A program made the translations under genes and the position numbers. A DNA stretch of 64,000 nt from Yponomeuta sedellus (taxonomy: Eukaryota > Arthropoda > Insecta > Lepidoptera > Yponomeutidae). Below, piece after piece: positions 1,714-39,500 of the stretch. The DNA is taken from contig OW203749.1 in NCBI GenBank assembly GCA_934045075.1, positions 4,084,304-4,148,303 on the forward strand. The letters are read 5' to 3'. The notes under the pieces were generated by a model that worked only from the letters and a program-made list of their open reading frames with translations, was not told where the DNA came from and made no database searches. Numbering within the stretch: position 1 is the stretch's first letter; the number at the start of each line of letters is the position of its first letter.

Positions 1714-2802
1714 TTATTGTTTTTCAAAGTATTCTCCACTATGATCGATGCACTTTTGCATTCGATGAAACCAATTTGTAAAACACTTTTTCCACTCTGA
1801 TTGAGGTATCTCCAAAACGTGCTGTTTGAACGCATCTACGGCATCTTCACGGGTCGAAAATCGTTGACCACGTAATTTATTCTTCAAATTTGGGAATAAA
1901 TAGAAATCGTTGGGAGCCAAATCAGGGCTGTACGATGGATGACCCATCAATTCTATTTTCTGACCAAAAATGTAGTTGTTTCCTGAGATGTATGACAGCT
2001 GGCATTGTCATGGTGAAGTATGATTCTGCGTCGCTGGTTGTTTTGGCGTATTTCTTCAAATACTTCCGGCAAACAAATGGTCGTGTACCACTCCGAATTA
2101 ACCGTTCTGCGATTCTCCAGTGGTATTGTAGCCACATGGCCATTAATACCAAAAAAACAGGCCACCATTTGCTTTACAGTGCTTTTTACACGAGCCACTT
2201 TCGTAGGGTTCGGCTCATTTTGAAACACCCAAACTGTTGATTGTTGTTTAGTTTCGGGATCATACGCGTAGATCCAGGATTCGTCACCTGTGTAGATATT
2301 ATAAACAGTTTTTGAGTCGCCTCCGTTGAATTTTTTTTAAGGTTTTCTCGCACCATTCGACGCGAGCATCTTTTTGATCCTGAGTTAAGTTGTGCGGGAT
2401 CCAACGCGAACAATATTTTTTTACAGACAAATGTTCATGTAATATCCTATGAATGCTCGTCATACATATGCCCAGAATAGCCTCTATCTCGCGATATGTA
2501 ACATGGCGGTCTTGCATTATTAGTTTTCGCACAGCTTCAATATTTTGAGGCACAACCACCGATTTCGGGCGACCTTCTTTAACTTCGTCCGTGAGCTTAT
2601 TGCGCTCGCGATTAAACTCACTAAACCAGTGATACACAGTCGTTTTTGATGGAGCTTCACCACCAAAAGTCGAAGTTAATTGATCTACGCACTGTTGTTG
2701 CGTTAAACCACGTCGAAAATCGTAATAAATCATAGCACGAATATTTTCACGAATGAGTTCCATTTTTTCAGCGATAAGATATTTTAAACCCAACAAAAAC
2801 AA
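1714..2802 (-). pseudogene. mariner transposase, disrupted by frameshifts
   Basis: The N-terminus reads MELIRENIRAMIYYDFRRGL with the helix-turn-helix region (TTVYHWFSEF, GRPKSV) from about 2766 down. The first catalytic Asp lies in YTGDESWIYAYDPE (near 2280), the second in ILHHDNASCH (near 2000) and the third in YSPDLAPNDFYLFP (near 1920), the DD34D arrangement of mariner. The stop follows HSGEYFEKQ at 1714. The coding frame changes at least twice (near 2300 and 1950), so no full protein of the usual ~345 residues can be made. Confidence 0.9.
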
Positions 2803-3109
2803 AACACTAACGTATATAAGAGAAAAATATTAGCGGCCAGTATTTAAAAGAACGAATTTGACCATGGAGGTCAGACATTGCGTTTAAAATTATTGGAATC
2901 CCAGATTCCGCATACATAAGTAGCAGCCTATGTATTTCATTTCAATCGAACAGCTCGAGAATAGAACTAAGGCGCTACGTTTAAGTTGTGACGTCATAGT
3001 CCGAGTTCGATTTCTATGGCGCGTTTTTGTACCACGTGACTAGAATGTTTTTTAGACTAGTCGCATTATGAAAAGAAATAGTCGTAGAAAAAAATTAAAC
3101 ACGTATATT

Positions 3110-15800: not shown

Positions 15801-18545
15801 GAAATGATCAAACTAAGCTAAGCCCTTATGTAAACACTTCTCATGGTCGATAAACTTTAATTCGTCGTCGTCAGGCTATACTTGTCCACTGCCGGACATA
15901 GCCTCCCCTAAAGAGCGCCACGTTGTGCTATCATAGGGGTCATATCATTCCCATACTCCTCACGCTCGGCATGCACTTTAATTACTCCGATGAAATTTTG
16001 AGGCAAGATCCCAATCGGCTACAGGCGCTGTCAGCGGCGGCGGACGCGGTCCAATGCGGCGGCAAGTCGCCGGTGTCAGCGTTGAATGAGCTGGGGGTAA
16101 ACGTGACGTACAGCGTGCGGCGGCAGAGTGGGCCCGCGCACTGCCCCAGCTTCAACGTCTGCGTCACGGTGAGTCAGCGTGCCTCCTGAAAATCACTACA
16201 GCCGGTTAGCTTTCAGAATATACCACGGGCTTTAGAGTAGGCTTCGGTTTTCACATAAACGGGATATAGGCGTGAGTTTATGTTGTACTCACTTAAGAGC
16301 CCTTTGCTGATTGCCTATACATCCCATATTGGGGCGGTGGTAGCGGAGCTGTGTAGAACGCCGGCCTCTCAATCGGGAGGTCGTGGGTTCAAACCCCGGC
16401 ATGTACCGATGACTTTGTTTTCTAAGTTATGTACATTTGTGATATTACAGTAGCAATACCACTCGCCGACGGTAAAGGAAAACATCGTAAGGAAACCCTA
16501 GTGTCTGAAGTGTTAACGTACCTCAGCGCTTGCTACGTACAATGGCCCAACTATGAGGCTAAGTGTACCCTCCCTGGCACAGGTGTCTATACACTTAATA
16601 GAAAGTCCCCACCACTGTGTAAAATTAATGTTAAGTTGATAAAGAAATAAATATTTTTGTATTTTTTTTTGTATTTTTTAAGTGCGGAAATCTCAGGTCT
16701 AACTACATCCCATATTATACTATTTTATTTTTAATGCACTAACCCGTGCTAAGGACAAATTTAAAAACCTATTTAGGGGCTAAAAATTTCACCTATGCCG
16801 GGATTCGAACCCGCAACCTCTGGCTATCCGTGCCAGCGCTCTTCCAATTGAGCCAATGGGCGACTCACCGGCATCAGTGAAATTTCGAACCTCTTTACAC
16901 TTTTCTCTGTATTACGTACAGGCAGCAACATCTGGCTTAAGTAAATTGCATCACTTACAGCCCCGACTACCTACTTTGCAGTTAGGTTTTACATCGGAAT
17001 GATATCACTGTACCCACATGATTATACTATTTTTATTTTTAATGCACTAAACCGTGCTAAGGACAAATTTAAAAACCTATTTAGAGGCTAAAAACCTTCC
17101 ATCCCATATTTGATTAAGTGTGTTTTCAATCCCTCTTCACGGACTATCTACAGTCTGTTAGCTTTTGGAATATACCCCGGCTACTAGCGGAGCGATCAAT
17201 TATATTGCGATAAGGTAAGGTTTATTAAGTATTGTTATTTATAACTTCACATAACTTGCAAAGTTCGTACTCGGGGCTGCAAGTGATGCAAATTACTTCA
17301 GCCAGATGTCGCTGCCTGTACGTAATACAGAGAATGTTGTGAAGAGGCTCGAAATTTCACTGATGCCGGTGAGCCGCCCATTGGCTCGGTTGGAGGGAGC
17401 GCTGGCACGGATGGCTGGAGGTCGCGGGTTCGTGTCCCGGCATGGGTGGAATTTTTGGCCTCTAAATAGGTTTTTCACATAACTTTTCAAAATAGTGAAG
17501 AAAAGTTTTATACAGAGTGCTTAGTGCGAGTTTGAGAGATCCAGTCGAATAACTTTACTAACGCGATAATCGAGCATCGAGTAGTGAGTATGAGAAGTTA
17601 ACCGTTCGAATTGGCAAAACGTTGTCACAGTACAACTCGCACTCGCGTTTATTCGTGTTTAATTTCCATACTTGTCGCTAGGTGGCGCTTCCTCGATGCC
17701 ATAGAAATATGAGTTTACGTTAACGCGATCGAGTAGTTAAAAAACTCGCACTAAGCACTCAGAGCAGCAAGTACCTAGTATTACACTCTTGCGCTTTCGG
17801 CGAAAACCGAAGCCTACTCTAGAGCCCGAGGTATATTCTAAAAGCTAACAGACTTCCTTTTTCATCTCCTTTTCTTGAATGAATGAATGAATGAATGAAG
17901 ACATTGAAATTGTCACTGAAAGGCAGAGTGAACAAGTAAAATACGTAATACAGAGATTATTGTAAAGAGGTTCGTGATTTCACTGATGCCGGTGAGTCGC
18001 CCCTTGGCTCAGTTGGAAAGAGCGCTGGCACGGACAGCCAGAGGTCGCGGGTTCGAATCCCGCCATGGGTGGAATTTTTAGCCTCTAAATAGGTTTTTCA
18101 AGTAAAATACACGCTTCACGTGCTACAGGTGGCCGATATGGTTTTCGAGGGCGCCGGGCACAGCAAGCGCGAGGCCCGGGCCTCCGCGGCGCGGGCCTGC
18201 CTCGCCGCCCTACTGGCCAGGGCGGGCCGCGTGCTGCCGAGAGCCCGCCCGCCCGCGGACTTTGCCGAGGACGACGTCAGCGCACGGCCAGGTGAGGCTC
18301 ACAAACACACACACACAACTATGTATCTCGAGCACAAATACAAAAATACAACACTGAATACATAGGAAGAGGCCTATATGTAGAGCATTAGACTGACACA
18401 GGCTGATTATGAACACTGAATCTTTCATGTATCCCGTAAATATCCCGCTGCAGGGCTCAGGACTTCCTTCAAAAAGAGAGAGTATGGACTAAATTACTAA
18501 ATACTATACACAATAATAATACCTGGTAAGGCTTGTGCGCAAGCG

Positions 18546-18576
<31 letters not shown>

Positions 18577-21500
18577 TCCCTCACTCACACACTGTTTCAC
18601 ATGTAACTTCTCGCATTCACACTCTTGCGAACAATTTTATATTTGTTTTAGTGTATAATATTATGGTCTGATCTCATTACAGTTCACAATTTAATTTTTT
18701 TTGTCATAATCATATTACCTAACTTTCCGCATTTGCAAGGTTATTCTGCATTTCAATAGTTTTCAATTTTGTCTTTTGTTATACAGACCTCTCCTCAACA
18801 CACACTAATAAAATAGTATACTCACATACTCCCACACTCACACACACAACTTCTATGAAATGAAATGGTTTTATTCAAAGTAGCGCAGAAACTGCGGCTT
18901 AGTGAACGTTACAATTCAAACTAGGTGTCCATATCAAAATCTAGATCATTTTGGATAAAAAATGGACAAAAAACTCCATACTTAGTATTTTCAAAGTCCT
19001 TAATTAACATTCAATACATAATTATTATAAAACAAGTCATATATTGTACTGGCTTTAATTCCAGACATCATTGTCTTCTAAATAATCCTTTATGTCATAG
19101 GAGCCCATTTGGCACAAAGTGTGCATAACATATTTTTTGAACCACGTTTCAGGCAAGCTTAATATATCTTGAGGGATTATATTATAGAAGCGTATACAAT
19201 GCCCCATGAAGGATGTATTAACCTTTGCCAGCGTAAATAATGAGAGTCTGTGTCAGTCTTGTAACTCTTGCTACAGTACTACACATCATAAAAGTACCCG
19301 AATCTATTAGTACATTCAACATGATCTTTAACCGATACGGTTAAGGTGCAGAATTGATTGCCGCAGGCGCACCTATTTCGCTCACGCTAATATTGCCAAA
19401 CTAATAGTCACCTGCATCGATGACGTTGAATCAACCAATAGCAACAAAGGCGCGCGGCCTGCCATAAAATGAAACTATCTGATTGGTCAATCAACTTGCC
19501 GCACATCCAAAATTTGGTCGCCTGCGCAGGTACATCCGCGAGACTTATTTCTTGTGTAGCACTGTACTTAGTTTCAATAACTCGTAAAAAATCACCACTT
19601 TCTTTTTCATATGCGAAGCCTCAGAATTCCAGTGCCTGGAGGCGAAGAACCGTCTCCAGGACGTCGCGAAGGTGGACGCGAAGTCCAAACCGGAGACCAA
19701 CGGCAAACCCAAGGCCGTCCCCGCACGTAAGTTGTTGATTTCAACCCTTGTATGTCCCCACTGCTGGGGTACGTAACTTCACTCAACGTCATACAGACCT
19801 GGGACAGCGTATTGCAGGTAAACACTCATAGGTACTGTAACACACTAGTTATTGAAACGCTGATATAGCAATAATACTTTCCTTTTAATTATCTTTTTTA
19901 TCACAAAACCTAGCCTAGCTGAGAGTCTCAGCACGACTGACACCTACCTAAACAAAACGTACCGATATTCTTCAAATAATTCAAACTTTGCCTAGACGGC
20001 TACGCCAGCCAGCTACTATAAAGAAGTATCGTTACATTTTCCCCCCTGAGTGCTTAGTGCGAGTTTGACAGATCCAATCCAATAACTTTACTACCGCGTT
20101 AATCGAGCATTGAGTAGTGAGATAGATAGATAGATAGAATATTCTTTATTGCATGTACACCAAGGATTACATAAGAGACTTATAAAATAACAGTACAGTA
20201 CAAGTGGCGGCCTTATTACTAAAAGTAATTTCTTCCAGACAACCATTGACGGAAAAGAAGAAACTGAAACTGAAATACGGGTAGTCGGCGCAACTAAACA
20301 ATATTAGATAACATATTATTTTATAGTTGATACACATACATAAACGATACATAAATATGAAATTGATACACATACATAAACGAGTACGAGTAAGTTAACC
20401 ATTCGAACTGGCAAAACGCTGTCACAGTACAACTCGCACTCGCGTTATTCGTGTTTTGGCTGGTAAACGTGTTCACTTCTCAACGTAAACCATTACAACT
20501 CGCACACAGCAATTTTAATTTCCATACTTGTCGCTAGGTGGCGCTTTCTCGATGCCATAGAAATATGAGTTTACGTTAACGCGATCGAGTAGTTAAAAAA
20601 CTCGCACTAAGCACTCTGTTATCAATAAATTTTAATTACAATTAAAATTTAACCTAGCTAACACTTCGATAGCCTAACGTCAGTCATGTGTCCTATAGTG
20701 TCGGGGAAATCGCACAATCTAGGCGAACGCATGACGCTCCATTACTAATTCGGTCAGTGTGCCAGAACAATTCATAGACCATCTAGACAATCTTGTTAGC
20801 ATTCGCAAAATCTCTCTAATTAAAAATTAAAAGAAAATCGGTCTATGACTGAACGGACAGACCCCTTCTCAGCAAAACCCAACAAAAAGCCGAGAAGACA
20901 CCATCGAACGCCGCTTCAAATACATAGAAAACAAGAACAATTCACATGAATACTAGATAGGACAGGGCAAGCTCAGAGCGTACATTCTGTGATGTTTCAA
21001 TGGCAACATTGACACAAAGGGCATCTGAATCAGCGTTAAATCAGGAATCATAAATAGTTGTGGTCAGGGTCTGATATCAACCCTTTGTACGTCCCTACTG
21101 CTGGGGCACGGGTCTCTTCCTGCATTGCAGAAAGGATAGGCCATACTCCACCAAGGGGGCCAAGTCCGGGTTGGTGGAGGAATGTAAGACAGTGGCGGGC
21201 TTACTGTCAGAAGTTATCAAGCCGCCCATAAGGCCTCTGGCATGGCTTTACGACTGCCATTACGTGACAGCCGGCACCAACGCCTGTCAATATACAATGT
21301 GAAATTTAAGCCGCTACCTTCGGGCCGTAGTGTAATGGAGAAAAAGGCAGCGGGAAAAAAAACTCCACTCCGACCGTCTTTTCTCAAGTCGTCTTAAACC
21401 TGATACATCAGTGGCCACCTATACGTAAGAGAAGATTTCGTGATTGCGATCAATAACTTTAAATGCCAAAGCATTAGTTAATTGTCTTACAAATGTAGGG

Positions 21501-24500
21501 AAGTATAATGAATAAAACCAATTTGATTACAAAAGAATCGCTCGTAGCCCCGGCTGCCTGAGTGATCTTAAACGATCACGTAGGTTAAGCAACACAGGGC
21601 GCGTTCAGTGCATGCATGGGTGACTGTCTATGACTAACGCTAGTGGCATTTTTCCGGGCGGTTCCGTGCTTCGCAAGGCACGTTAAGCAGTCGGTGCCGG
21701 CTGCCGTTGATAAATGGCAGCCGTTAAGTCAAGTTAAAGTCAGAGGCCTTAGGGCTGCTTGAAACCTTCTGACAGTAACACCAGCCTTGCAAGCCTACAC
21801 CAATCCGGACTTGGCCCTTGTGGTGGAGTATGGCCCCTATACCTTCCTCAGGGACTCCTCCCTAAGGACGGGTCTCTACCCGTGCTCTGCGGAGACATAA
21901 TATAAACGGGTTGATGAAGATGACGGGTTGATGACGCTTAGCTACTTTGGACAAAAATATAGCTACGAAATTATTGGTCCACCAATCCCGACTTGGCCCC
22001 CGTGGTGGAGTATACCCTCAGGGAAGAGACCCGTGCCGCTCGGTGAGGACATAATGGCTTGATGAATATGATGATTATGAATGAATGTTCTTATTTTAAT
22101 TAGACTTCGCCCCCTCAGCGCCGCCCCCCGCCCCCGCCCCGGCCCCGCAGCCGGCCGGGGACTTCCCCTCGGCCTCCCTCTTCGGGGCTCCGACCGCTCC
22201 AGCTGTGGTCAAGAGCCCAATCAACCTGCTCTACGAGAACTACCCCGGACTGGTGTTCCACTGCACCTTCGGTGACGGGACCCCTCTAGACACGGCTACT
22301 CGTGAGTATATTTCACTTGAATTGTACTTTAGTGTTCAAAGAATATTGTGAAGAACTCTGCTTTAGGCGGGAACAATGTCATAAAATTTTAATATTAAAC
22401 ATTCACTCTCATAACACTTTATCACTCACACTACTTCACTCACATACACACTGAAACTCGTTCACTGACGTAATTTTATTGGAAAGTACTGTACGGAGGC
22501 CTAAATTGTTAGCCTACTAGCAGAGTGTGGATGATAATAGTAAAACGCTAGAATTGTACAGTGCTACACAAGAAATAAGTCTTACGAATGTACCTGCGCA
22601 GATGACCAAATTTTGGATGTGCGGTAAGTTGATCGACCAATCAGATAGTTTCATTTTATGGCAGGTCGCGCGTCTTTGTTGCTATTGGTTGATTCAACGT
22701 CATCGATGCAGGTGACTATTAGTTTGGCAATATTAGCGTGAGCGAAATAGGTAGTGCTACTGCGGCAATCAATTCTGCACCTTAACCGTATCGGTTAAAG
22801 ATCATGTTGAATGTACTTATAGCTTCGGGTACTTTCGTTACACTTCTTCCTAGTCTGCGCGATCGAAGATTCCCGAAGGGACTTTTATGATGTGTAGTAC
22901 TGTACGAGTAGCTCGGTTGATTTATTTTCTGCAAGTGTCACATGTCAACAAACAATTGTATGGAATCAGGCGTTACTTTGCGGATATCCATAACAGCATT
23001 AAAATGTGAAAATTACTTTGCTAAATTCCGCTAAAAATCCCACAAGCACCATCTTCATCTTCAGGCTATATAAGTCCACTGCTGCACATAGCCCTCCCCA
23101 AATGAGCGCATGGTTGTGCCATCATTAGGGGGTAATGCCCATAATCCCCACGCTGGGCATGCGGATTGGGGATCGCAGTTCGGTGGAATTGTACTGCAGG
23201 GGGCGCTGCTGCCCACCCCCCGGTTTCAGTCCCTTAGTCGCCTTTTTTGACACCCGCGGGAAGAATTTGAATTTGACAAGCACCATGCGGCTAGTTAATG
23301 CACCGCCCTCCCTCCCACTTATTCAAGCAGAAGCAAGACACGAACACACCACCACCGACACTAATACTTGTGTAAAAAAATTCGCGACGCGTCTCGCTTC
23401 TAACACGAGGCATCCTCACTTGTGTGTCACGTGTGAGTGAGTATGACAGCTTTGATTGCGGATGTGTTTTCTTCTTCTTCTTCAGGCTATATTAGTCCAC
23501 TGCTGGACACAGCCCTCCCCTAATGATCGCCATAGCGCAAGGTTGTGCCATCATTGGGGGGTAATACCCATAATCCCCACGCTGGGCATGCGGGTTAGGG
23601 ATCGCAGATTGGTGGAATTGTACTGCAGGGGGCGCTGCTGCCCACCCCCCGGCTTGTGTCGCTTAGTCGCCTTTTACGACACCCGCGGGAAGAATTTGGG
23701 TTGGTGCTATTCTCTAGGCCGACACCACACAGAACCCCAGCCCGTAACACTATTATTGATCCCATGTGATAATCAAATTACATTACAGTCAGCACAAATG
23801 TGTTTTACAGGTATTTTAATTTTGTTCCAGCCCCGATGCAACTGAGTCACAGCATGCGGTTCAAAGTGGTGTGTCAGATCAAGGAGCAAACTTTCGAGGG
23901 ATATGGTGAGTTAGTTACCAAGGGCGGTCGCAGGTTGACGACTTGGTTTTATAGTGATCATATTTAAAAACCTATTTAGAGGCTAAAAATTTCACCCATG
24001 CCGGGGTTCGAACCCGCAACCTCTGGCTATCCGTACCAGCGCTCTACCAATTGAGCCAATGGGCGACTCACGGCATCAGTGAAAGGATGATGGGCACAAA
24101 TGTATGGAACCTGGTCCTGGCACCAATCGGAATGAGTAATACGTCGTTGGAAAGGTATTTTTTTGTAGAATAAGAATAATCGAAGCGCTAGTCCCGATTT
24201 TCTGTCCAATTTGAGTAATCATACGTTAAAAGTTTTTTTTTATTAATTTTTTTTTCTGTTGTTTTAATTCTTTTTGATATTTTTTCGACATTGTATATCG
24301 ATTTTAATTACAAATGATCAGCATTGATTATTATATTATCATTGTTTGTTTATTATCGAAGTAAATAAAACAAGTTCAGAGTAAGTTTTATCGTTTAATG
24401 TGTTTCATCCATGATAATGTTATTTAAAAATAGTGCTGGTTCAGTAAAGCCTTGATGTCTAGCATATCCTAAATACCACACAATAGATATAATATGCGCA

Positions 24501-27500
24501 CAGGAACCTATCGTGCGGCGTCCTGTCAAACATGTGCAATAATGTTGTAATATGTTTCTACTATTTCTGTCTAATATTATATAGCAAAAATATTGTTTTG
24601 ATCGTACATGTCGGGACTGTATGCGTGCACGCAACAGCCACGCATCTTCGTGGATCCCATATTCATGGATATCCTCCAAAGCAGCTTCTCTATAAGTTTC
24701 TATAAGATATAAGCCGTTGTTGAGGTGCTCGCTGCAATATGATTTTGCCAGTTTTAACTGATATGTCCCCAATGACAGCAAAATCACGTCCTGTTCCCTC
24801 AATCGTGGAAAGTCTTGAATGTCATTTGCTTCCAATCTCTGGAAATTGGCTCTTCTGTTGTTTAATCTTTTTGCTTCTACATAATCATATAACACGTTTG
24901 GGGTTTGCCTTCTTTCAACAATTTTTTGTAAAAAAGCTTCTGCGTGTTGGCTATCGACAATAGGCCTGTGGAAGTGATTTGTAATTGCTGCTGCAATCAT
25001 AAAATCCCCGAACATATTAGGCATTGTGTTATTAAAATATTTTTGGCGCAACAGCTTGAAATCTCTTTTGAAACGCCCGTTAACCACTTCCACTACCCAT
25101 CGGCACATTGTCACCAGCCGGGAATCATTTGCTTGAGAAGTCGTGAGCTGCGACTCTTCCCGGTTCTTCGTCGGGGGGACGTGAAATTCGTAGCCACATG
25201 CTTCTATATGCTGCAGACTATCCCTGAACCCGCGGTCCAAAATAAATACGTCATTCGGCTGAAGCAATATATGAAGGGGATTTTCCTCGTCAGTCATTAA
25301 GTCGCTCATTATCTGCGCATCAGTTTTTGTTGCAGCGTATGGTCCTTTAACATCTATAATGTATCCGTCAGTGGTTACGATTAAAAATGGTTTCAACAAG
25401 TTTTGGAACTTGTGTAAACTGTAGGATTGCCTCTGAAACAAAAAGTTTGAACTCTTGTATATATAAATATACGTACCATCGCAAATAATAATGGCTTTAT
25501 TGTTGTCTTCATTTCCATACAGTGCTTTTGGAATCCTCAAGTTTCTCTCCAATATATCTTCTCTATTCATGTGATCCACTCCCAAGTGTCGCACAACGTA
25601 GTCAGTGCTAAGACACTCTCGTGCGATGGCCAACTTTTCTCCGAGACATGTTAAACAACGTCGCAAGTCTCGCGTTGGGTTCTCCTGTGCGTAGTTTCGT
25701 TAGTAAAATGCCCAAAGTGGTTCTGGGATCTGCACTTCTATTTCTTAATAATGGATTTTGCTCTAAGATGGCATTAAATTCATCATTAGTACGTCCAGTC
25801 CAAAAGTGCATTTCTTCTTCATTCATGCCTCGCTCGCTAAAACGTAATCTGGGTGAGTTTAAGGCATTTCGCATTAGGTCACAAACATCCCTGAAGTGGG
25901 CAGCCGTAAAGTCATGGGAAATGTTGCAATGTTGGGGCAAATCATCCCAATCATTCCCATTAAGGTGATCTTGACATACTCTGGCACTGTCGGGGATATA
26001 CAATTTATGTTGAGAAAATACGTGGATTTTAACAACATTTGGAATTCGATGGCGGGTTTCATTAGCGCAGCCATGAAAGATACAATGCGTCGCGGTATTA
26101 GGTGCTCTCATATATTCAGGAATATGAAGCATTTCTTCTAATTGCGGTTGTAGTTGTTCTTGCGGTTGTAGTTGTTCTTGCGGTTCTGCTTGTTCTTGCG
26201 GCTCCGGCTCGGGTTGAGGGTTTGCATGACCTCTAGTCGCATTTTCGGCTCTTTGCCAGCATCGGTAACATACTCTTCGGGTGTTGTCAAACACGACCTG
26301 AAAATGATATATGAAAATGTAAGGAAAAGAAAAACAACTTTGGTTTCCGAAAAATACCTAACAAAATAACGCATTGGGGGTCATTTGTGGGAGGGATTTG
26401 TTTTTCTGTCAGAAGGTGTGCGAATCGTCAAATATATGCCACAGATTCACAGATTTCTCAGAGATCTGGTTGCGGTTTTCTGTAGTTGTGTGTACGAAAA
26501 CAAGGCATACACACAACCACACAAAACCGCAACCACAGTAATTGGTTGTGGTTTTGTGTAGGCCTTGTTTTGGTGGTAAATACATCGTGGAAGACGTAAA
26601 AGTGAAAAAGGAATCACTTGAATGTTCTTTAAGCGACCAGAATCACTTATCAATCGGTTTTCACTTTTACGTCTTCGTTACCTCATTTACTACTAGAATA
26701 GATCTGGGATGCAGTTGTACATGATTTCAATTGGTTTCCTTTTATATCGAAGGTTCAGTGAGGATCGAGTGGAAAAAAAAAGTGCAATAGGTACAAACCT
26801 CCAGAGCAGCGTTTTCTCGTATAAATGTTACTAGCTCCACGTGTGTTCTTGTCAAGGCTTCCGACAGAACGCGTACTTGATATCTGCCTCGGTATAGCCC
26901 TCTTCGGCACATTACACAGTTACGGTAACGTTCCATTGCAACGAAACAATCCAATCGTTAAGCACCCAAGTCCAATATAAAGCCACGGTCAACAAATAAA
27001 ACGGGTAACAGAGTCCAAAATGATGCCAAGGTCAAAGTCGATGTGAACAATGAGGAGCGTAATAACGTAGCACTTAACACAATATCAGCAAACGACTGAC
27101 TACCTGCGCAAGCGGCCAAGCGTTCCTCACCGTAACATACCTGCCCCCGCGCCGTGTCCCGGAGCGCGAGAGGGGTCAAAATCGAATTCCAGCGTTACCC
27201 GTGACCGTGAGTGGGAGAGAGAGCGCAATGTCGCTGTCTCGCTCTAATGATTTATGACAGAGTATGCATAGATGTGATTTTCGTAAAAATCATGAGCATC
27301 GGTTGAGTTAAACCAGAGATATGAATTTTTCTAATTTCTATTTAAAGCAAAAAATGGTACTTTCCGACGAGCATATTTCAAAATGGACAATTCATACGGA
27401 TTCGTCTTCATAGAATTTATTTTTTCACTTGAAAAGAGCTATCCAACGACATATGACTCATCTTGATTGGACATAAGGACCAAAACGCCCATCATCCTTT

Positions 27501-30500
27501 CGAACCTCTTTACAATATTCTCTGTATTACGTACAGGCAGCGACATCTGACTTAAACAAATTGCATTACTTACAGCCCCGACCACCTACTTTGCAGTTAG
27601 GTTTAACATCGGAACGATATCACTGTACCCACATGATTACACTATTTTTATTTTTAATGCACTAACCCGTGCTAAGGAACAAATTTAAAAACCTATTTAG
27701 AGGCTAAAAATTTCACCCATGCCGGGGTTCGAACCCCCAACCTCTGGCTATCCGTACCAGCGCTCTACCAATTGAGCCAATGGGCGATCATATTGTTCAC
27801 GAACACGTTCGCATAAGGAAGGAGATCCGGCGGCGTCGATGTGGACCAAGCTATGGTGCATTTTTCTATGAAGCTATATTTTGACAACTACTGAAACGTG
27901 TACAAATACCTATATTAAATAATAAAAACCCAATAACCAACTGTTCCTAATATATTTACATAATATTCAACAGTTATACTGGTGTTGGGTAACTTAAACG
28001 TTCTCACAAAGAACTTATTGAATGAATGAATGCATGAAGGAATGAAATAATGAATGAAAAGTTATTAAAAGTTGTTAAAGTTATAGTGTGACGACCTCTG
28101 TGGCGTAGCGGTAGCGCGTCTGCCTACCATGCAAGAGGTCCCGGGTTCGAATCCCGGCTGGGAACAAAAAAGAAACCCCAGGTCTTGGATGTTTACATGT
28201 TTGTGTTGTCGTTGTTTCTGGTTCCCACGACACAGGGTATCCTAGTGTGGGGTCAGAAGCAATGTATGTGCCAGTATGTAAATGTTATGTTATTATTTAT
28301 CTAATCTAAATATAATCTGTTTGTCATGTTATGGCAGTCGTTAAGCCACGTCAGAGGCCCTATGGGCGGCTTGAAAACTTCTGACAGTAAGGCCCGCCAC
28401 TGTCTTACAATCCTCCACCAACTCGGACTTGGCCCCCGTGGTGGAGTATGGCCTAACCTTCCTGCGATGCAGGAAGAGACCCGTGCCCAAGCAATGGGTA
28501 CATACAAAGCGTTGATATCAATCCGTTTGTGATGTGCCGGTGGAGCTAGAAGTGATGACCAAATAACGAAGACCCCCCGCCGGCAGGCTCCTCCAAGAAG
28601 CTCGCGAAGCTGGCGGCGGCGCGCGCGGCTCTCGCGACGCTGGACGAGGGCCGCGCCGAAGCCTCGCCCATAGTTTGCAGCCCTCGCTCGCAGGACGTGC
28701 TGCCGCAGACGCTAGCCGATTACGTCTCCAAGTGAGTGGAACTGTAGCTGTAAAGAAATTCTGGCACTGCATACACTTTTTAGAAAATTTCTAGTGCCAA
28801 ATGCCGACGCTTTCTAGGCAAATTCTAGCGCCGCATACTGGCTCTTACTAGCGACTGTGGCGTCGCTTGCCGACTCTTACTGGTGATATTCTAGCGCCGC
28901 ATGCCGACTCTTACTAGCGACATTCTAGCGCCGCATGCCGACTCTTACAGGCGACATTCTAGCGCCGCATGCAGACTTTCTAGCAACGTACTAGCCCCAC
29001 ATGCTTACTCTTACTGGCGACATTCTAGCGCCGCATGCAGACTGTTTCTGGCAACGTACTAGCGCCGCATACTGACTCTTACTGGCGACATTCTAGCGCC
29101 GCATGCAGACTCTTTCTAGCAACGTACTAATGCCGCATGCTAACTCTTACTAGTGACATTCTAGCGCCGCATGCCGACTCTTATTAGCAACGTACTAGCG
29201 CCGCATGCTGACTCTTACTGGCGACATTCTAGCGCCGCATGCTGACTCTTACTAGCGACATTCTAGCGCCGCATGCCGACTCTTACTAGCAACGTACTAG
29301 CGCCGCATGCCGACTCTTACTGGCTACGTACTAGCGCCGCATGTCGACTCTTACTAGCAACGTACTAGCGCCGCAGGCTGACTCTTACTAGCGACATTCT
29401 AGCGCCGCCTACCAACTCTTACTAGCGACATTCAAGCGCTGCATGCCGGCCTCTTCTAGCGACATTCTAGCGCTGCGTGCCAACTCTTACTAGCGATATT
29501 CTAGCGCCGCCTACCAACTCTTACTAGCGACATTCTAGCGCTGCATGCCAACTCTTACTAGCAACGTACTAGCGCCGCATGCCGACTCTTACTGGCTACG
29601 TACTAGCGCCGCATGTCGACTCTTACTAGCAACGTACTAGCGCCGCAGGCTGACTCTTACTAGCGACATTCTAGCGCCGCCTACCAACTCTTACTAGCGA
29701 CATTCAAGCGCTGCATGCCGGCCTCTTCTAGCGATATTCTAGCGCCGCCTACCAACTCTTACTAGCGACATTCTAGCGCTGCATGCCAACTCTTACTAGC
29801 GATATTCTAGCGCCGCCTACAAACTCTTACTAGCGACATTCTAGCGCTGCATGCCGACTCCTTCTGGCGACATTCTAGCGCTGCATGCCGACTCCTTCTA
29901 GCAACATTCTAGCGCCGCATGCAGACTCTTACTAGCGACATTCTAGCGCTGCATGCCGACTCCTTCTAGCAACATTCTAGCGCCGCATGCAGACTCTTAC
30001 TAGCGACATTCTGGGGCTACATGCCGACTCCTTCTAGCGACATTCTAGCGCCGTGTGCCGACTCTTACTAGCGACATTCTAGCGCCTACATTCTACAATG
30101 ACTTGTCGCCTTAAGCGGAGTCTCCAGTGACATTCCAGTGCTGTCTATCCCTACCGAAGTCATAAGTGATACACCAAAAAATCTGGCTAAATTGACTATT
30201 GATTGTCGTCAAAGGCTATTTTTACTGCGACTTCGCAGGCTGGTGAATGAGAGATTCAACGAGCTGATGCGAGATGACGTGGTGCACGCCAAGCGGAAGG
30301 TCCTGGCCGGCATCGTCATCACCATAGACAACCAGATCGAGGGGGCCAAGGTGAGAGGTTTGCTGTGTGGTGTCGGCCTAGAGAATAGCACCGACCCAAT
30401 TCATTCCGCGGGTGTCGTAAAAGGCGACTAAGGGACACAAACCGGGGGGTGGGCAGCAGCGCCCCCTGCAGTACAATTCCGCCGAACTGCGATCCCCAAC

Positions 30501-33500
30501 CCGCATGCCCAGCGTGGGCATTATGGGCGTTACCCCCTATGATAGCACAACGTGGCGCTCTTTAGGGGAGGGCTGTGACGAGTATAGCCTGACGACGACG
30601 AAGACGAAGGTGAGAGGAGTCACTTAGACAACATACTTAAACACTTAATTGTACATTAAAATGTAAATTACTCAGATTTTGTTTGTCCTTAACATAACAT
30701 AACATTTCATATACAAGCACATTGCTTCTGGCCCCACACTAGGATACACTGTCTCGTGGGGACCAGAAACAACGACATCACAAACATTTAAACATCCAAG
30801 ACCTGGGGTCTTTTTTGTCTCCAGCCGGGAAGCTTGTATTCAGACACTCACACATTCACACACTCTATCTCACATATCACACACATTGTACGAATAATAT
30901 GAATAACATGTGTAATGCAACATTGTAATAAAATAATTAAATTTTGCAATGGGGAGGTAGTGCCATACAATTTTAAAACTAGTTAGGACATAAGGTAGTT
31001 AACATAACATTTACATACAGGCACATACATTGCTTCTGGCCCCACACTAGGATACCCTGTCTCGTGGGGACCAGAAACAACGACATCACAAACATGTAAA
31101 CATCCAAGACCTGGGGTCTTTTTTGTCTCCAGCCGGGATTCTTGTATTCAGACACTCACACATTCACACACTATCTCACACATCACACACATCACACACA
31201 TTGTACGAATAACACGAATAACATGTACAATGCAACATTGTAATAAAATAATTAAATTTTGCAATGGGGAGGTAGTGCCATACAATTTTAAAACTAGTTA
31301 GGACATACGGTAGTTAACATAACATTTACATACAGGCACATACATTGCTTCTGGCCCCACACTAGGATACCCTGTCTCGTGGGGACCAGAAACAACGACA
31401 TCACAAACATGTAAACATCCAAGACCTGGGGTCTTTTTTGTCTCCAGCCGGGATTCTTGTATTCAGACACTCACACATTCACACACTATCTCACACATCA
31501 CACACATCACACACATTGTACGAATAACACGAATAACATGTACAATGCAACATTGTAATAAAATAATTAAATTTTGCAATGGGGAGGTAGTGCCATACAA
31601 TTTTTAAACTAGTTAGGACATAAGGTAGTTAACATAACATTTACATACAGGCACATACATTGCTTCTGGCCCCACACTAGGATACCCTGTCTCGTGGGAA
31701 CCAGAAACAACGACATCACAAACATGTAAACATCCAAGACCTCGGGTTTTTTTTTTGTTCTCAACCGGGGATCGAACCCAGTCGAGCACAGGGCTTCTGT
31801 CAGGCAGTGAATGGATTTTAATGAAACCATACAATAATATAGCTTATACAAAAGAATAAACACAAAGGCTACAATTTATAAAGATAATCTAAAAATAATG
31901 TAAAACTTTTGAAATGCGACCTAATAATTATTTATGTGATAATTTTAATGTTTTAATGTAAGTTCTTTACTGCGCCAAGCTTATTTAAGCTACTCGAAAT
32001 ACTAATCCTGCGCAGACGAATTCGCGGGCACCAGCTAGTTTATTATATTTACTTGTATCACCACTTACCGTCCATCATTACAGGTATCTTATGCGATAGA
32101 GTTGTAGTGTTCTAAAAGCTTTATAAATAATAAAATTGGAACGACTTTAATTTTGTGCTTTCCTTGTACTGTTTTATTTTAATATTGGCCTTATTGCATC
32201 TACTTAATGAGATGATTTATATAGCGTCCAGTGGTATCTTCACTCACACTAGATGGGTGAAGGGACCACTCCGACGCTGTAGTGCCTGGGACATGGTTTT
32301 ATAGATGGTGTAGGCTTGCCCAGCACCTATACCATTCTGACAGCTTAGCCGGCCTAGCCCACAGGAAAGACTAGTCAATACGTGCGGAGCCAACCAAGCC
32401 GCGGGTTTCCTCACGATGTTTTCCTTCACCGTTAGCGTGTGGTATTGCGATTGCAAATTCGCAAATGTACGTAACTTTGAAATGACTGTTTTATTTTATA
32501 TTTATTAAAAATACAGAAAACTAGATTAAAAACGGGATAAGCAGGTAAAAATAGTCAGGTCTAGTCAAGATGTGAAGTAGTAATGATGAAAATGAAAATC
32601 TCGATTGTGTGTGACGTAATTTTAAATATTTGATAATGATAGTGAGAAAAAGAATTTATAAAAAAATGGTGTATAGAGCTTTGCACTGTTACAGAGTTAC
32701 AGATATTTCAAGTCAGTTGTGCGCGCGGCCCTATGTGTGGGTAGGGTTACCATATATAAATAGAGGGATGCCTGTCTATGGTACCTAAAATGCCTGATTT
32801 TTCAGAAAAATGCCTGTCTAAAGCAAAACGCTGTAAGTAAAAGCCAACAGATAATAATAAAGAAGGATGTTTATTACTGATATTTGTCAGATGACATTAT
32901 TTTTTTTAATAGTTCTTTCTTTTCTAATACATAAACGTAAAAATCTTCACAAGATACAGTTTTGTAATTTTCCTGAGTAATCAATATTGCTTTTACTGAT
33001 TCAATTGTCAGCCGATTTCTTTCTTTACTCCACTGGACGTTGACGAGAGAAAACATACGTTCTACGTTTGCATTGTGTGCCAAAATAGAGAACACAAACT
33101 GGCAGATTTTTACGAATTCTGTAATTTCACCAAACCATTCCCTACTTTTGAGAAAATTGCACTACTGCGTAGTTAAGCTTTCAGAAAAAAATACGTTATC
33201 TGAACTTCTACAATATTCTTTTATTCGACAGTCGCGCGCGAGCGTGAAATTTTTAAAAATGCCTGTCTCAAACCAATGCCGGCCGCACGCCTGTCTAAAC
33301 CTTAAAATGCCTGTCAAATGCGGCAAACGCCTGTCATATGGTAACCCTATGTGTGGGTAAACCTTGTACATATACAGTAACTTTGTGACTTTGTGTGCGT
33401 GACAAGAGGTACAGCCGGGTACAAAATACAAATACAGTTATTTAAACAAATTTGAAACAAAAAGGTATAACTCTGTTTTTAAGGTCTTTGCAACTTGTAT

Positions 33501-36500
33501 TTGATAATATACGGGTTCTTAAAAAAAACAATAATTTGGTAATTTAATGTTTATGTATTGAACAAGGACATTTGCAGTTAAGGACATTCAATGTCCTTTC
33601 ATTGTTAACAGGTCTGTTTAATTTAAGTACCTAGCGTGTTATGGAATCTGTAAGTCAGCTATTAAACTGTCATTAAAATTCTTTGTTTACAGAGCAACAC
33701 GTTTGCTGTAACTGCTCCATTAATTGAAAACTTATTTATTATATATCTTTTCGTATATAGAATCATAATAAAAATCTTTTATATCTAAATTCAAAATTAA
33801 CAAATATTAACCTGACTTCTTAAACATTTTCTTCGTGAAGAACTAGACATTATTGTCAACAACTGTATCCGTACGACGCTGGACGCCTTGCTCGGACGAC
33901 GACTGCCGCGTCACTGCCACACAAATGAAAGCTGTATATTTACAAGCGCACGCACACATAGCGCCGCGCGCACGACTGACTTGAAATATCTGTACTTAAA
34001 ATTAAAGTAAATTTTAATAAAAAGACAACGCCTCATATTTGGAGGTAAAACGCCGATGACAACGATTCACGCAGGCTCTGAGTGCTTAGTGCGAGTTTGA
34101 CAGATCCAATCGAATAACTTTACTACCGCGATAATCGAGCATTGAGTAGTGAGTATGAGTAAGTTAACCGTTCGAACTGGCAAAACGCTGTCACAGTACA
34201 ACTCGCACTCGCGTTTATTCGTGTTTTGGCTGGTAAACGTGTTCACTTCTCAACGTAAACCATTACAACTAGCACTCAGCAATTTTAATTCCCATACTTG
34301 TCGCTAGGTGGCGCTTCCTCGATGCCATAGAAATATGAGTTTACGTTAACGCGATCGAGTAGTTAAAAAACTCTCACTAAGCGCTCTGGTCTGCAGATCT
34401 TCACAACACGCTGTCCACAAGATTTCAAATCGCAGGTCTAAGAAAGAGGTTCGTTCTAAAAGCTGACAGACTCCTCGTAACTCGTTGAACAGCTGATCGG
34501 CGTGACGACCGGCACCAAGTGCGTGAGCGGCGAGCACATGTCGGTGCGGGGTCGCGCGCTCAACGACTGCCACGCGGAGGTGGCGGCGCGGCGCTGCCTG
34601 CTGCGGCATCTGTACGCGCAGCTGGCCATGTACGCCGTGGCCGCGGGTGAGACCAGCGAGAGAGAGAGAGAGAGAGTGAGAGGGGGGGGAGAGAGAGAAA
34701 GAGGTGGCGGCGCGGCGCTGCCTGCTGCGGCATCTGTACGCGCAGCTGGCCATGTACGCCGTGGCCGCGGGTGAGACCAGCGAGAGAGAGAGAGAGGGGG
34801 GGGGGGAGAGAGAAAGAGGTGGCGGCGCGGCGCTGCCGGCTGCGGCATCTGTACGCGCAGCTGGCCATGTACGCCGTGGCCGCGGGTGAGACCAGCGAGA
34901 GAGAGAGAGTGAGAGAGGGAGTGGGGGGAGGGAGAGAAAGAGGTGGCGGCGCGGCGCTGCCTGCTGCGGCATCTGTACGCGCAGCTGGCCATGTACGCCG
35001 TGGCCGCGGGTGAGACCAGCGACTGAGAGAGAGAGAGAGAGAGAGAGGGAGGAACCAAACCAAATTCTTCCCGCGGGTGTCGTAAAAGGCGACTAAGGGA
35101 CACAAACCGGGGGGTGGGCAGCAGCGCCCCCTGCAGTACAAATCCAACAAACTGCGATCCTAACCCGCATGCCCAGCGTGGGGATTATGGGCACTACCCC
35201 GCAATGGTGGCACAACCTTGCGCTATGGCGCTCATTAGGGGAGGGCTATGTCCAGCAGTGGACTAATATGAACAGCCTGAAGAAGAAGAATAAAATAGGT
35301 ACGCAGTTATGCATTTTAACAGTGGTCTTCACACTAAGCGCATAGCCTGCAGTCTATTCTTACTTGTCCAATTTAGTAAACAAAATTCTAACCTTAAAAT
35401 TGAGATTAGATGCCTAAACTAGAAATTTTCTCGCAAATTCATGAACTATGTTTATAAAATTGGGAGCGTGTTATCTAAAAGAGTGTTCCAGGTTACTTCA
35501 TTTATGAAAATATGGCAGTTTTAGACTAAAAAGTCACCACCAAAGGGTAGAATCTTGCTTACTAAATTGGACAAGTAACAAATAAATAGGCTGTATAGTG
35601 GCGGCCGAATTAGTTTGGGGACCATCCATAAATTACGTCACACGTTAAGGGGGAGGGAGGGAGCTGACGAAGTGTGACATTGTGTGACAGGGGGGTGGGA
35701 GGGGTCCTAAATTTCGTGACGTCACATTTCCAAAGTGTTAAAACACGAACTTTGAACTATTAAGGAAATCGCCACATCTGCAACTCTTGATATGAAAATA
35801 ATTTCGGAACAGCTTTGAATTTGAATTCAATAATTTCTAAATGTTAAATTGCAAATGTGTGACGTCACCCTAAGGCGGGGGGAGTCTCACAAATGTGACC
35901 AGCTGTGACAAGGACGGGGGAGGGGTTAAAAAATCACGAAATTCTTGTGACGTAATTTATGGATGGCCCCTTGTGGCTATATTAGTCCAGCAGTGGACTG
36001 ATATAGCCCGAAGAGGAAGTCCCTAAGTCGCGGCCGCGCCCGCAGACCCGTCGCAGCCGATCGCCGAGTCGGACGTGGAGCCGGTGGCGGGCGGCGGGTA
36101 CCGGCTGAAGCCGTCGCGCGCGGTGCACCTGTACGTGAGCACGGCGCCCTGCGGAGACGGACGCATCTTCAGTCCGCACGAGCAGCCGCAGCCGCTGCCC
36201 GACCGGCACCCCAACAGGTGACGCCCTTATTGCTAAGTGACGCTCTTATTGCTATAGGTGACGCTCTTATCTTTAGGTGCTAGGTGACTCTCTTATTGCT
36301 ATGTGACGCTCTTATTGCTAGGTGACGCTCTTATTATTGTCAACAGTCTCGACCTTCGGCCTCGCAATATGCAGACATATACTTTGAGTTCGCAATTCCG
36401 GCTCAATGTAGCTTTGCTCTACGTGGGGCTCGGCCTTCGGCCTTAATTTTGTAGTGTCAGGCTTTCGCTGCTCATTGTTAAAGCTATTTTCATATTAGAC

Positions 36501-39500
36501 AGTGTTTAGCATTCGGTCAGTTTTTGGGCTAGGTTCGCTGTACAAGTTTACGTGAGCACGGCGCCCTGCGGCGACGGACGCATCTTCAGTCCGCACGAGC
36601 AGCCGCAGCCGCTGCCCGACCGGCACCCCAACAGGACAGGCTCTTATTGCTAGCGGGATAAGGGTCATAGTTAAACGGACAAGGAACGGACGGCGCGACT
36701 GCCGCATCTTTAGCCCGCATGAGCGGTCCACTGACGCCCTTATTGCTAGCGGACGCAATGACCGGACGGCGCGACGGTAGCATCTTCAGCTCGCACGAGC
36801 AGCCGCAGCCCGACCGGCACCCCAACAGGTCAGGTTCTTATTGCTAGGTGACGCTCTTATTGCTATGTTACACTCGTATTGCTAGGTGACGCTCTTATTG
36901 CTAGGTGACGCTCTTATTGCTAGATGACGCTCTTATTGCTAGGTGACTCTCTTATTGCTAGGTGACGCAATGACCGGACGGCGCGACGGTAGTATCTTTA
37001 GCTTCTACGAGCAGCCGCAGCCGCAGCCCGACCGGCACCCCAACAGGACAGGCTCTTATTGCTAGCGGGATAAGGGTCATAGTTAAACGGACAAGGAACG
37101 GACGGCGCGACTGCCGCATCTTTAGCCCGCATGAGCGGTCGACTGACGCCCTTATTGCTAGCGGACGCAATGACCGGACGGCGCGACGGTAGCATCTTCA
37201 GCTCGCACGAGCAGCCGCAGCCCGACCGGCACCCCAACAGGTCAGGTTCTTATTGCTAGGTGACGCTCTTATTGCTAGGTGACGCTCTTATTGCTAGGTG
37301 ACGCTCTTATTGCTAGGTGACGCTCTTATTGCTAGGTAACGCTCTTATTGCTAGGTGACACTCTTATTGCTAGGTGACGCTCTTATTGCTAGGTGACGCA
37401 ATGACCGGACGGCGCGACGGTAGCATCTTTAGCTTCTACGAGCAGCCGCAGCCGCAGCCCGACCGGCACCCCAACAGGTGAGGTTCTTATTGCTAGCGGC
37501 CGTAATGACCGGACGGCGCGACGGTAGCATCTTTAGCCTCTTCGAGCAGCCGCAGCCCGACCGGCACCCCAACAGGTGACGCCCTTATTGCTAGGTGACG
37601 CTCTTATTGCTGTAGGTGACGCTCTTATCTCTACGTGCTAGGTGACTCTCTTATTGCTATGTGACGCTCTTATTGCTAGGTGACGCTCTTATTGCTAGCG
37701 CGATAAAGCTTATAGTTGAGAGAGAACGGCTCGACAGAAACACTACATATCAAGACCAATACTTTATTTCAGCATGGTTCCCAATTAAACTAGCTAGAAG
37801 ATTATGCAACAGTCTCGACCTTCGGCCTCGCAATAATGCAAACACATACTTTGTGTTCGCAATTCCGGGGTGCTACTGGCTTCGCTCTCTGCGGGACTCG
37901 GCCTTCGTCCTTATTGAGTCAGCCTCGGCCTACCGAAGTAATTTTGTAGTGTCAAGCTTTCGCTGCTCATTGTTAAAGCTATTTTCATAGTAGACAGTGT
38001 TAAGCATTCGGTCAGTTTTTGGGCTAGTGACGCTCTTATTGCTAGGTGACGCTCTCATTGCTAGGTTACGAAATGACCGGACGGCGCGACAGCCGCATCT
38101 TTAGCCTCTACGAGCAGCCGCAGCCGCAGCCCGACCGGCACCCCAACAGGTGAGGTTCTTATTGCTAGCGAGATAAGGGTCATAGTTAAACAGAAAAGGA
38201 ACGGACGGTGCGACTGCCTCATCTTTAGCCCGCATGAGCAGCCGCAGCCCGACCGGCACCCCAACAGGTGACGCCCTTATTGCTAGGTGACGCTCTTATT
38301 GCTATAGGTGACGCTCTTATCTTCAGGTGCTAGGTGACTCTCTTATTGCTATGTGACGCTCTTATTGCTATGTGACGCTCTTATTGCTATGTGACGCTCT
38401 TATTGCTATGTGACGCTCTTATTGCTATGTGACGCTCTTATTGCTAGGTGACGCTCTTATTATTGTCAACAGTCTCGACCTTCGGCCTCGCAATATGCAG
38501 ACATATACTTTGAGTTCGCAATTCCGGCTCATTGTAGCTTTGCTCTACGTGGGGCTCGGCCTTCGGCCTTAATTTTGTAGTGTCAAGCTTTCGCTGCTCA
38601 TTTTTAAAGCTATTTTCATATTAGACAGTGTTTAGCATTCGGTCAGTTTTTGGGCTAGGTTCGCTGTACAAGTATTACGTGAGCACGGCGCCCTGCGGCG
38701 ACGGACGCATCTTCAGTCCGCACGAGCAGCCGCATCCGCTGCCCGACCGGCACCCCAACAGGTCAGGCTCTTATTGCTAGCGGGATAAGGGTCATAGTTA
38801 AACGGGAAAGGAACGCATTTAGCCCGCATGAGCAGCCGACTGACGCCCTAATTGCTAGCGGAGGCAATGACCGGACGGCGCGACGGTAGCATCTTCAGCT
38901 CGCACGAGCAGCCGCAGCCGCAGCCCGACCGGCACCCCAACAGGTGACGCCCTTATTGCTAGCGGATGCAATGACCGGACGGCGCGACGGCAGCATCTTT
39001 AGCCTCTACGAGCAGCCGCAGCCAGACCGGCACTAGGTCCGCTCTCCGCGGGACTCTGCCTTCGTCCTTATTGAGTCAGCCTCGGCCTTCTGAAGTAATT
39101 TTGTAGTTTCAAGCTTTCACTGCTTATTGTCAAAGCTATTATTTTCATGTTAGACAGTGTTTAGCACTCGGTCAGTTTTTGGGCTAGTGACGCTCTTATT
39201 GCTAGGTGACGCCCTTATTGCTAGCGGACGCAATGACCGAACGCCGCGACGGCCGCATCTTTAGCCTCTACGAGCAGCCGCATCAGCAGCCCGACCGGCA
39301 CCCCAACAGGTGAGGTTCTTATTGCTAGCGGGATAAGGCGTATATTTAAACGGAAAAGGCCGGACGGCGCGACTGCCGCACCCCAACAGGTGACGCCCTT
39401 GTTGCTAGCGGGATAAGGGTCATAGTTGAGGAGAAGGCCGCATCGATAGCCTCCAAAAGCTACCGCAGCCTTTAGTACTGCAAAAGGTTCATTTTTGAGA

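What the first reader, a model, noticed from the sequence alone, without database searches (positions are those of the whole stretch)
19272..22904. Near-identical ~295-bp inverted repeats flank Adar exons 6 and 7
Two copies of one MITE lie in opposite orientation 58 bp before exon 6 and 256 bp after exon 7. In the Adar pre-mRNA they can pair into a long double helix with both coding exons in the loop. Long inverted repeats around exons are a known cause of circular RNA and exon skipping, and long double helices are the substrate of ADAR itself. Removing exons 6+7 (300 nt) keeps the frame and would delete the linker and the first part of dsRBD2. That Adar regulates itself this way is inference.
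Basis: partly seen in the sequence, partly recalled or inferred. Interest (0 to 1): 0.86.

Follow-up and report, generated by a model that had tools for sequence, protein, structure and literature searches.

The report
Inverted transposon pair inside moth Adar
Two copies of a small transposon lie in opposite directions around two exons of a moth or butterfly's own RNA-editing gene, so its RNA could fold into a long double helix there; the layout is real and testable, but it looks like one of many chance repeat pairs in a repeat-rich gene.

Summary
Elements of 295 bp (19272-19566) and 348 bp (22557-22904), with terminal inverted repeats and TA at both ends, lie in opposite orientation in introns 5 and 7 of a lepidopteran Adar gene, 58 nt before exon 6 and 255 nt after exon 7. 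Their core is 94.3% identical over 280 columns. They can form 290 base pairs, and the minimum-energy fold of 7.45 kb of pre-mRNA keeps that helix. Exons 6+7 are 300 nt; skipping them keeps the frame.

The context is ordinary. Of 16 inverted repeat pairs in this gene (at least 70 bp, 75% identity, within 10 kb), 13 enclose exons. A tRNA-Ser-like SINE pair encloses exons 5-8 concentrically, and a hairpin with a 262-nt spacer in intron 4 is, by distance, a better editing substrate. Nothing here shows editing, back-splicing, skipping or conservation: no RNA data and no related insect genome were reached. Best reading: chance transposon insertions that make a pairing-competent pre-mRNA, probably with minor editing or circular-RNA by-products. 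Adar self-regulation is possible but unsupported.

The parts
19272..19566 (+). MITE copy 1 (arm 1), intron 5; 295 bp including TA at both ends; inner end 58 nt before exon 6
22557..22904 (-). MITE copy 2 (arm 2), intron 7; 348 bp including TA at both ends, about 50 bp longer than copy 1; starts 255 nt after exon 7
19625..19726 (+). Adar exon 6 (102 nt), linker between the two dsRBDs
   Evidence: exon 6 itself gave no tblastn match in the six printed lists; it follows from the ORF, the AG/GT borders and the open frame
22104..22301 (+). Adar exon 7 (198 nt), linker plus first part of dsRBD2
18129..18291 (+). Adar exon 5 (end of dsRBD1)
23831..23905 (+). Adar exon 8 (middle of dsRBD2)
17978..18101 (+). 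tRNA-Ser-like SINE, outer arm, 27 nt before exon 5
23963..24084 (-). tRNA-Ser-like SINE, outer arm, 57 nt after exon 8; 90% complementary to 17978-18101
16763..17475 (.). inverted-repeat hairpin inside intron 4 (arms 16763-16987 and 17249-17475, 87%, 262-nt spacer); a tRNA-Ser-like match is found in the first arm only

Best explanation
Two TA-flanked MITE copies of the Tc1/mariner type inserted separately in introns 5 and 7 of a lepidopteran Adar gene and happen to lie in opposite orientation (from the anatomy). In whatever fraction of pre-mRNA still holds both introns they can pair into a helix of about 290 bp with exons 6 and 7 in a 3-kb loop (computed). Most likely consequence (inference): some A-to-I editing of the helix by Adar protein and low-level back-splicing of exons 6-7 into a 300-nt circle, as by-products of a repeat-rich gene and not as a dedicated switch.
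For: Opposite copies with terminal repeats and TA ends. Arms together -533.3 kcal/mol against -75.3 and -108.1 alone and -176.5 with arm 2 flipped; 290 inter-arm pairs, longest run 118 with G-U pairs, 79 Watson-Crick in a row. 290 of 297 arm-1 positions pair with arm 2 in the folds of 3.76 kb and 7.45 kb. 13 of 16 inverted pairs within 10 kb in the gene enclose exons, so the layout needs no special cause. Passages seen: complementary introns in hairpin orientation raise circle output in fly constructs (PMC12060249); ADAR1 knock-down raises circular RNA (PMC4761006); in mammals the majority of circular RNAs are judged unlikely to have specific functions (PMC8516420).
Against: No RNA evidence. 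The 2,990-nt spacer exceeds the 2 kb below which inverted Alus are favoured for editing (PMC4761006 passage). Insect data are mixed: honeybee intron pairing does not separate circular from linear exons (PMC6347836 passages), and introns bordering many fly circles lack complementary repeats (PMC6769675 passage). Intron 5 may be spliced before arm 2 is transcribed (inference). No third MITE copy was found in the window and no genome count was obtained, so the family is inferred from two copies.
Confidence: 0.68

Rival explanations
1. Autoregulatory loop: when Adar is scarce the helix stays intact and exons 6-7 are circled out or skipped, giving an enzyme without the linker and the start of dsRBD2; when Adar is plentiful it edits and loosens the helix and full-length mRNA rises. 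The sign would be positive feedback, opposite to mammalian ADAR2. (Confidences here are not exclusive of one another.)
For: In-frame 300 nt; first by length x identity among the 19 inverted pairs within 6 kb in the window; ADAR1 antagonises repeat-driven circles in worm and human (PMC4761006; PMC6769675).
Against: No RNA data; spacer about 3 kb; competing pairs in the same gene. Of 32 proteins checked by motif (31 lepidopteran, 1 of unnamed source), 16 show the dsRBD1 end, SPIN-LYEN and SHSMRFK together, 4 lack only the SPIN-LYEN motif but have normal spacing, and 12 could not be scored, so no skipped form was seen; this is weak, being other species.
Confidence: 0.07
2. Inert pair: introns 5 and 7 are removed too quickly for the arms to meet, and the insertions have no effect.
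For: Exons 6-7 have ordinary AG/GT borders; arm 2 is transcribed about 3 kb after arm 1; most intronic repeats are tolerated (general knowledge).
Against: Very strong predicted helix; copy 1 ends only 58 nt from the exon 6 acceptor.
Confidence: 0.2
3. The outer SINE pair or the intron-4 hairpin, not the MITE pair, is the main structural influence: the intron-4 hairpin is the chief self-editing substrate, and the SINE arms beside exons 5 and 8 mask their splice sites.
For: Intron-4 hairpin: spacer 262 nt, 87%, cofold -378.0 kcal/mol against -65.4 and -87.7 alone. Outer arms 27 nt from the exon 5 acceptor and 57 nt from the exon 8 donor, cofold -210.6. The 7.45-kb fold forms both: 210 of 228 and 115 of 160 positions.
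Against: Shorter and less alike than the MITE pair; the upstream outer arm also has inverted partners at 16760-16918 and 27684-27787.
Confidence: 0.12
4. Inverted segmental duplication or assembly error instead of two transposon insertions.
For: Only two copies in 64 kb, both in one gene.
Against: The similarity stops at the terminal repeats with TA at all four ends, and the arms differ by 5.7% in the core and a ~50-bp indel.
Confidence: 0.05

Closest known systems
Drosophila laccase2 and scarecrow circular-RNA loci (intronic complementary sequences)
   Same: Complementary sequences in the introns flanking the exons; circle output in constructs depends on hairpin orientation, with sequences of either gene (PMC12060249 passages)
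   Different: Back-splicing is shown there and not here; here the loop is about 3 kb and the host gene is Adar
Inverted Alu pairs flanking human circular-RNA exons; human and mouse circADARB1
   Same: Young TE pairs in opposite orientation; an ADAR-family gene as host of a circle (PMC8516420, PMC8567645, PMC9526749 passages)
   Different: Alu/SINE, not MITE; I saw no statement that Alus drive circADARB1 (0 matches for 'Alu' in the main text of PMC8567645)
Mammalian ADAR2 auto-editing
   Same: An ADAR pre-mRNA that carries its own possible substrate (PMC4761006 passage)
   Different: ADAR2 editing makes a new splice site and a nonfunctional mRNA; nothing of the kind is shown here
Tc1/mariner-type MITEs (family traits recalled)
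   Same: Short, terminal inverted repeats, TA at both ends
   Different: No matching autonomous element or third copy seen in the window; genome not searched

Membership tests
Tc1/mariner-type MITE | terminal inverted repeats | tested here: met
   TACAGTRCTACACA at all four ends with at most 1 mismatch to either terminus
Tc1/mariner-type MITE | TA target duplication | tested here: met
   TA at both ends of both copies; two bases only, so weak by itself
Tc1/mariner-type MITE | multi-copy in the genome | tested here: inconclusive
   two copies in the window; own-genome search unanswered
Tc1/mariner-type MITE | autonomous relative with the same terminal repeats | tested here: inconclusive
   window only: no other such terminus at up to 2 mismatches except one 2-mismatch match at 12897
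circular-RNA locus driven by intronic complementary sequences | complementary sequence in both flanking introns, able to pair | tested here: met
circular-RNA locus driven by intronic complementary sequences | back-splice junction reads, lost on arm deletion | not testable with these tools
   no RNA-seq available
ADAR auto-editing locus | ADAR-dependent A-to-G clusters in its own pre-mRNA changing its splicing | not testable with these tools
   no RNA-seq available
Adar (ADAR2-like editase) | two dsRBDs and the deaminase domain | tested here: inconclusive
   tblastn with lepidopteran Adar proteins covers both dsRBDs and most of the deaminase, about 13978-42694; the last ~160 residues of the longer forms are not in the window. 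Pfam was run on exons 5-9 only: dsrm above its cutoff in the joined protein (43.3 bits, profile 27-66), below it for exon 5 alone (16.5 against 23); the deaminase was not scanned with Pfam

The most novel reading that the evidence does not exclude
Adar of this lepidopteran has acquired, from transposons, a self-referential splicing switch: concentric MITE and SINE helices around exons 6-7 and 5-8 are melted by Adar's own editing, so that enzyme level sets the ratio of full-length to dsRBD2-broken protein and circular RNA, with positive feedback.
Probability: 0.06. Interest if true: 0.78.

Novelty: new member of a known kind. Interest (0 to 1): 0.4.

Why it matters
If the helix acts, an enzyme that modifies double-stranded RNA would govern its own splicing through such RNA. 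That would give an easily tested natural case of whether editing controls repeat-driven circular RNA in insects, where the role of intron pairing is disputed (PMC6347836 and PMC6769675 passages). If it does not act, it is a useful example of exon-enclosing inverted repeats arising by chance in a repeat-rich insect gene.

Tried and rejected
Related DNA: exact core patterns of the MITE gave 0 matches in viral contigs and 0 in genome contigs; these hold viruses and prokaryotes, so this says little. The genome count of the MITE, the number of opposite pairs near exons and the state in relatives could not be obtained.

Skipped isoforms in relatives: one search found 384 proteins and listed 120; I scanned 32 of these by motif (P0001-P0030, P0032, P0033: 31 lepidopteran and one, P0030, of unnamed source; P0031, a beetle, left out). 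16 show all three motifs. 4 lack only SPIN-LYEN (P0012, P0013, P0019, P0023), with 114-128 residues from the dsRBD1-end motif to SHSMRFK against 104-138 in the 16, so the segment is present there. 12 could not be scored, because one of the two outer motifs was missing. No skipped isoform was seen, in species whose genomes may lack this MITE pair anyway.

Pfam on joined exon proteins does not show damage to dsRBD2 on skipping: the dsrm match (profile 27-66) stays, 45.3 bits against 43.3. The claim that the domain is broken is therefore inference from the alignment.

Direct against inverted pairs: within 6 kb there are 109 direct and 19 inverted pairs, so inverted pairs are not in excess; I did not separate tandem arrays out of the direct count.

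A pairing of the exon 6 acceptor side with the exon 7 donor appears in the 7.45-kb minimum-energy fold. I give it no weight, since single pairs in folds of this size are unreliable.

Age: 5.7% difference in the core (JC69 0.059). I did not convert it to years, because no rate was tested here.

Print: eight searches gave listings with titles and starts of abstracts; some lists were cut (10 of 32 papers, 12 of 98) and one search found none. I saw no title on inverted repeats or circular RNA in a lepidopteran Adar gene, but no search named exactly that combination, and the library lacks most subscription journals. Papers were seen as listings and passages; one section of PMC7469206 was read whole. 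Kramer 2015 (PMC4617980) is not held and is known here only through citing papers; Ivanov 2015 and the ADAR2 auto-editing papers likewise.
Full report
What is there. The window is lepidopteran: a query joined from its own exon translations finds Adar proteins of moths and butterflies first (Amyelois 61% over 88% of the query, E = 4.4e-138; 384 proteins at E up to 0.001, 120 listed). tblastn with 13 of these, matches printed for 6, places the exons on the + strand between about 13978 and 42694. Exon borders near the finding have AG/GT signals: exon 5 18129-18291, exon 6 19625-19726, exon 7 22104-22301, exon 8 23831-23905. Exon 6 has no tblastn match in the six printed lists; it is supported by its ORF, its borders and the frame. 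Exons 5-8 join in one open frame; exons 6+7 are 300 nt, and exon 5 to exon 8 stays in frame. The skipped product would lack the linker and [23 protein letters not shown], which aligns with the first part of dsRBD2 in other lepidopteran proteins. Pfam's dsrm model starts at its position 27 in both the full and the skipped product (43.3 and 45.3 bits), so it does not itself show a loss.

The two elements. Inverted arms were found by the repeat finder and blastn (280 columns, 94.3%, plus a 24-bp outer match; 272 of 296 in an end-to-end alignment). Termini TACAGTRCTACACA lie at 19272(+), 19553(-), 22557(+) and 22891(-), which gives elements of 295 and 348 bp with TA at all four ends. Copy 2 has about 50 bases near its outer end that copy 1 lacks; short AAAGT repeats there make a deletion in copy 1 plausible (inference). 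These traits fit a Tc1/mariner-type MITE. That class name rests on recalled family traits; with two copies only, the family is inferred. No third copy was found in the window.

Pairing. Together the arms give -533.3 kcal/mol, alone -75.3 and -108.1, and with arm 2 flipped -176.5. There are 290 inter-arm pairs, 163 A-U, 121 G-C and 6 G-U, in runs up to 118 (79 Watson-Crick in a row). These calls used stretches 1-2 bases longer than the elements. The helix forms in minimum-energy folds of 19200-22959 and 16700-24150, 290 of 297 arm-1 positions in both. Such folds show that pairing is possible, not that it happens during transcription.

How special is it? In the window there are 133 inverted pairs of at least 70 bp and 75% identity, 19 of them within 6 kb; 3 of these reach 200 bp and 85%, and the MITE pair ranks first by length times identity. 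Direct pairs are more numerous (223 in all, 109 within 6 kb). Within the gene, 16 inverted pairs lie within 10 kb and 13 enclose exons: 4-6, 5-8 (three pairs), 6-7, 7-8, 8-10 (two), 9-10 (four) and 14 (my picks for the borders of exons 3, 4 and 9-14 are approximate). Several of the 13 share an arm, so they are not independent. A two-copy family dropped at random would give this geometry around an exon with P = 0.011, but there are many families, and this one was chosen after looking.

Concentric SINE pair. Sequences 17978-18101 and 23963-24084 (124 columns, 90%) contain tRNA-Ser-like structures on opposite strands. They stand 27 nt before exon 5 and 57 nt after exon 8, around the MITE pair. 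In the 7.45-kb fold both pairs form (290 of 297 and 115 of 160 positions). Exons 5-8 sum to 538 nt, so skipping all four would break the frame. A third structure, the intron-4 hairpin (16763-16987/17249-17475, spacer 262 nt), also forms (210 of 228).

Likely working. Shown: sequence, orientation, frame, capacity to pair. Inferred: that pairing brings the exon 7 donor and exon 6 acceptor near each other (58 + 255 nt instead of 2,677 nt), favouring a 300-nt circle, and brings exon 5 and exon 8 nearer, favouring an in-frame skip; that Adar protein edits the helix. In flies, complementary introns in hairpin orientation raise circle output in constructs, with sequences of either of two genes (PMC12060249 passages). 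In worms and humans ADAR1 opposes such circles (PMC6769675 and PMC4761006 passages). Against a strong effect: Alu editing is favoured below 2 kb and distance is called the most important feature (PMC4761006), while here it is 2,990 nt; honeybee circles are not explained by intron pairing (PMC6347836); and the majority of mammalian circular RNAs are judged unlikely to have specific functions (PMC8516420). If feedback exists its sign should be positive (more Adar, looser helix, more full-length mRNA), unlike ADAR2 auto-editing, which makes a nonfunctional mRNA (PMC4761006). That difference is a clean test.

Prior art. Human and mouse ADARB1 yield circular RNA (PMC8567645, PMC9526749 passages), and silkworm Adar has several splice forms, including one whose coding region starts within intron 4, with altered dsRBM1 (PMC7469206, passages and section 3.1). 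The arrangement is thus a new instance of a known kind. What could not be done: own-genome counts, related lepidopteran genomes, and any RNA data.

Noticed in passing
17978-18101 and 23963-24084: tRNA-Ser-like SINE pair in opposite orientation, tight around exons 5-8 and concentric with the MITE pair.
   Followed up: partly
16763-16987 and 17249-17475: Inverted-repeat hairpin in intron 4 with a 262-nt spacer, by distance the better candidate for self-editing.
   Followed up: partly
34577-35049: Tandem array, period about 124, 3.9 copies: the 3' part of a deaminase exon with its donor site (GGTGAG) and GA repeats, copied in the intron.
   Followed up: partly
36028-39310: The deaminase exon with [16 protein letters not shown] is followed by 11 partial copies (36540 to 39310, counted with query P0001) in a satellite-like region.
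   Followed up: partly
42694-64000: The last ~160 residues of the longer lepidopteran Adar forms (after HMYR) have no credible match in the window (best E 0.26), and a lipase fragment lies on the minus strand at 49454-49798; far exons beyond the window, a short form or loss are all possible.
   Followed up: partly
24395-25696 and 1956-2829, minus strand: Transposase remains: DDE_Tnp_4 in the intron after exon 8, and a Mos1-like mariner in two overlapping frames upstream of the gene's first exon found.
   Followed up: no
28143-28292 with 30694-31779: One repeat before exon 9 faces four opposite copies after exon 10 (87-94%), another exon-enclosing inverted set.
   Followed up: no
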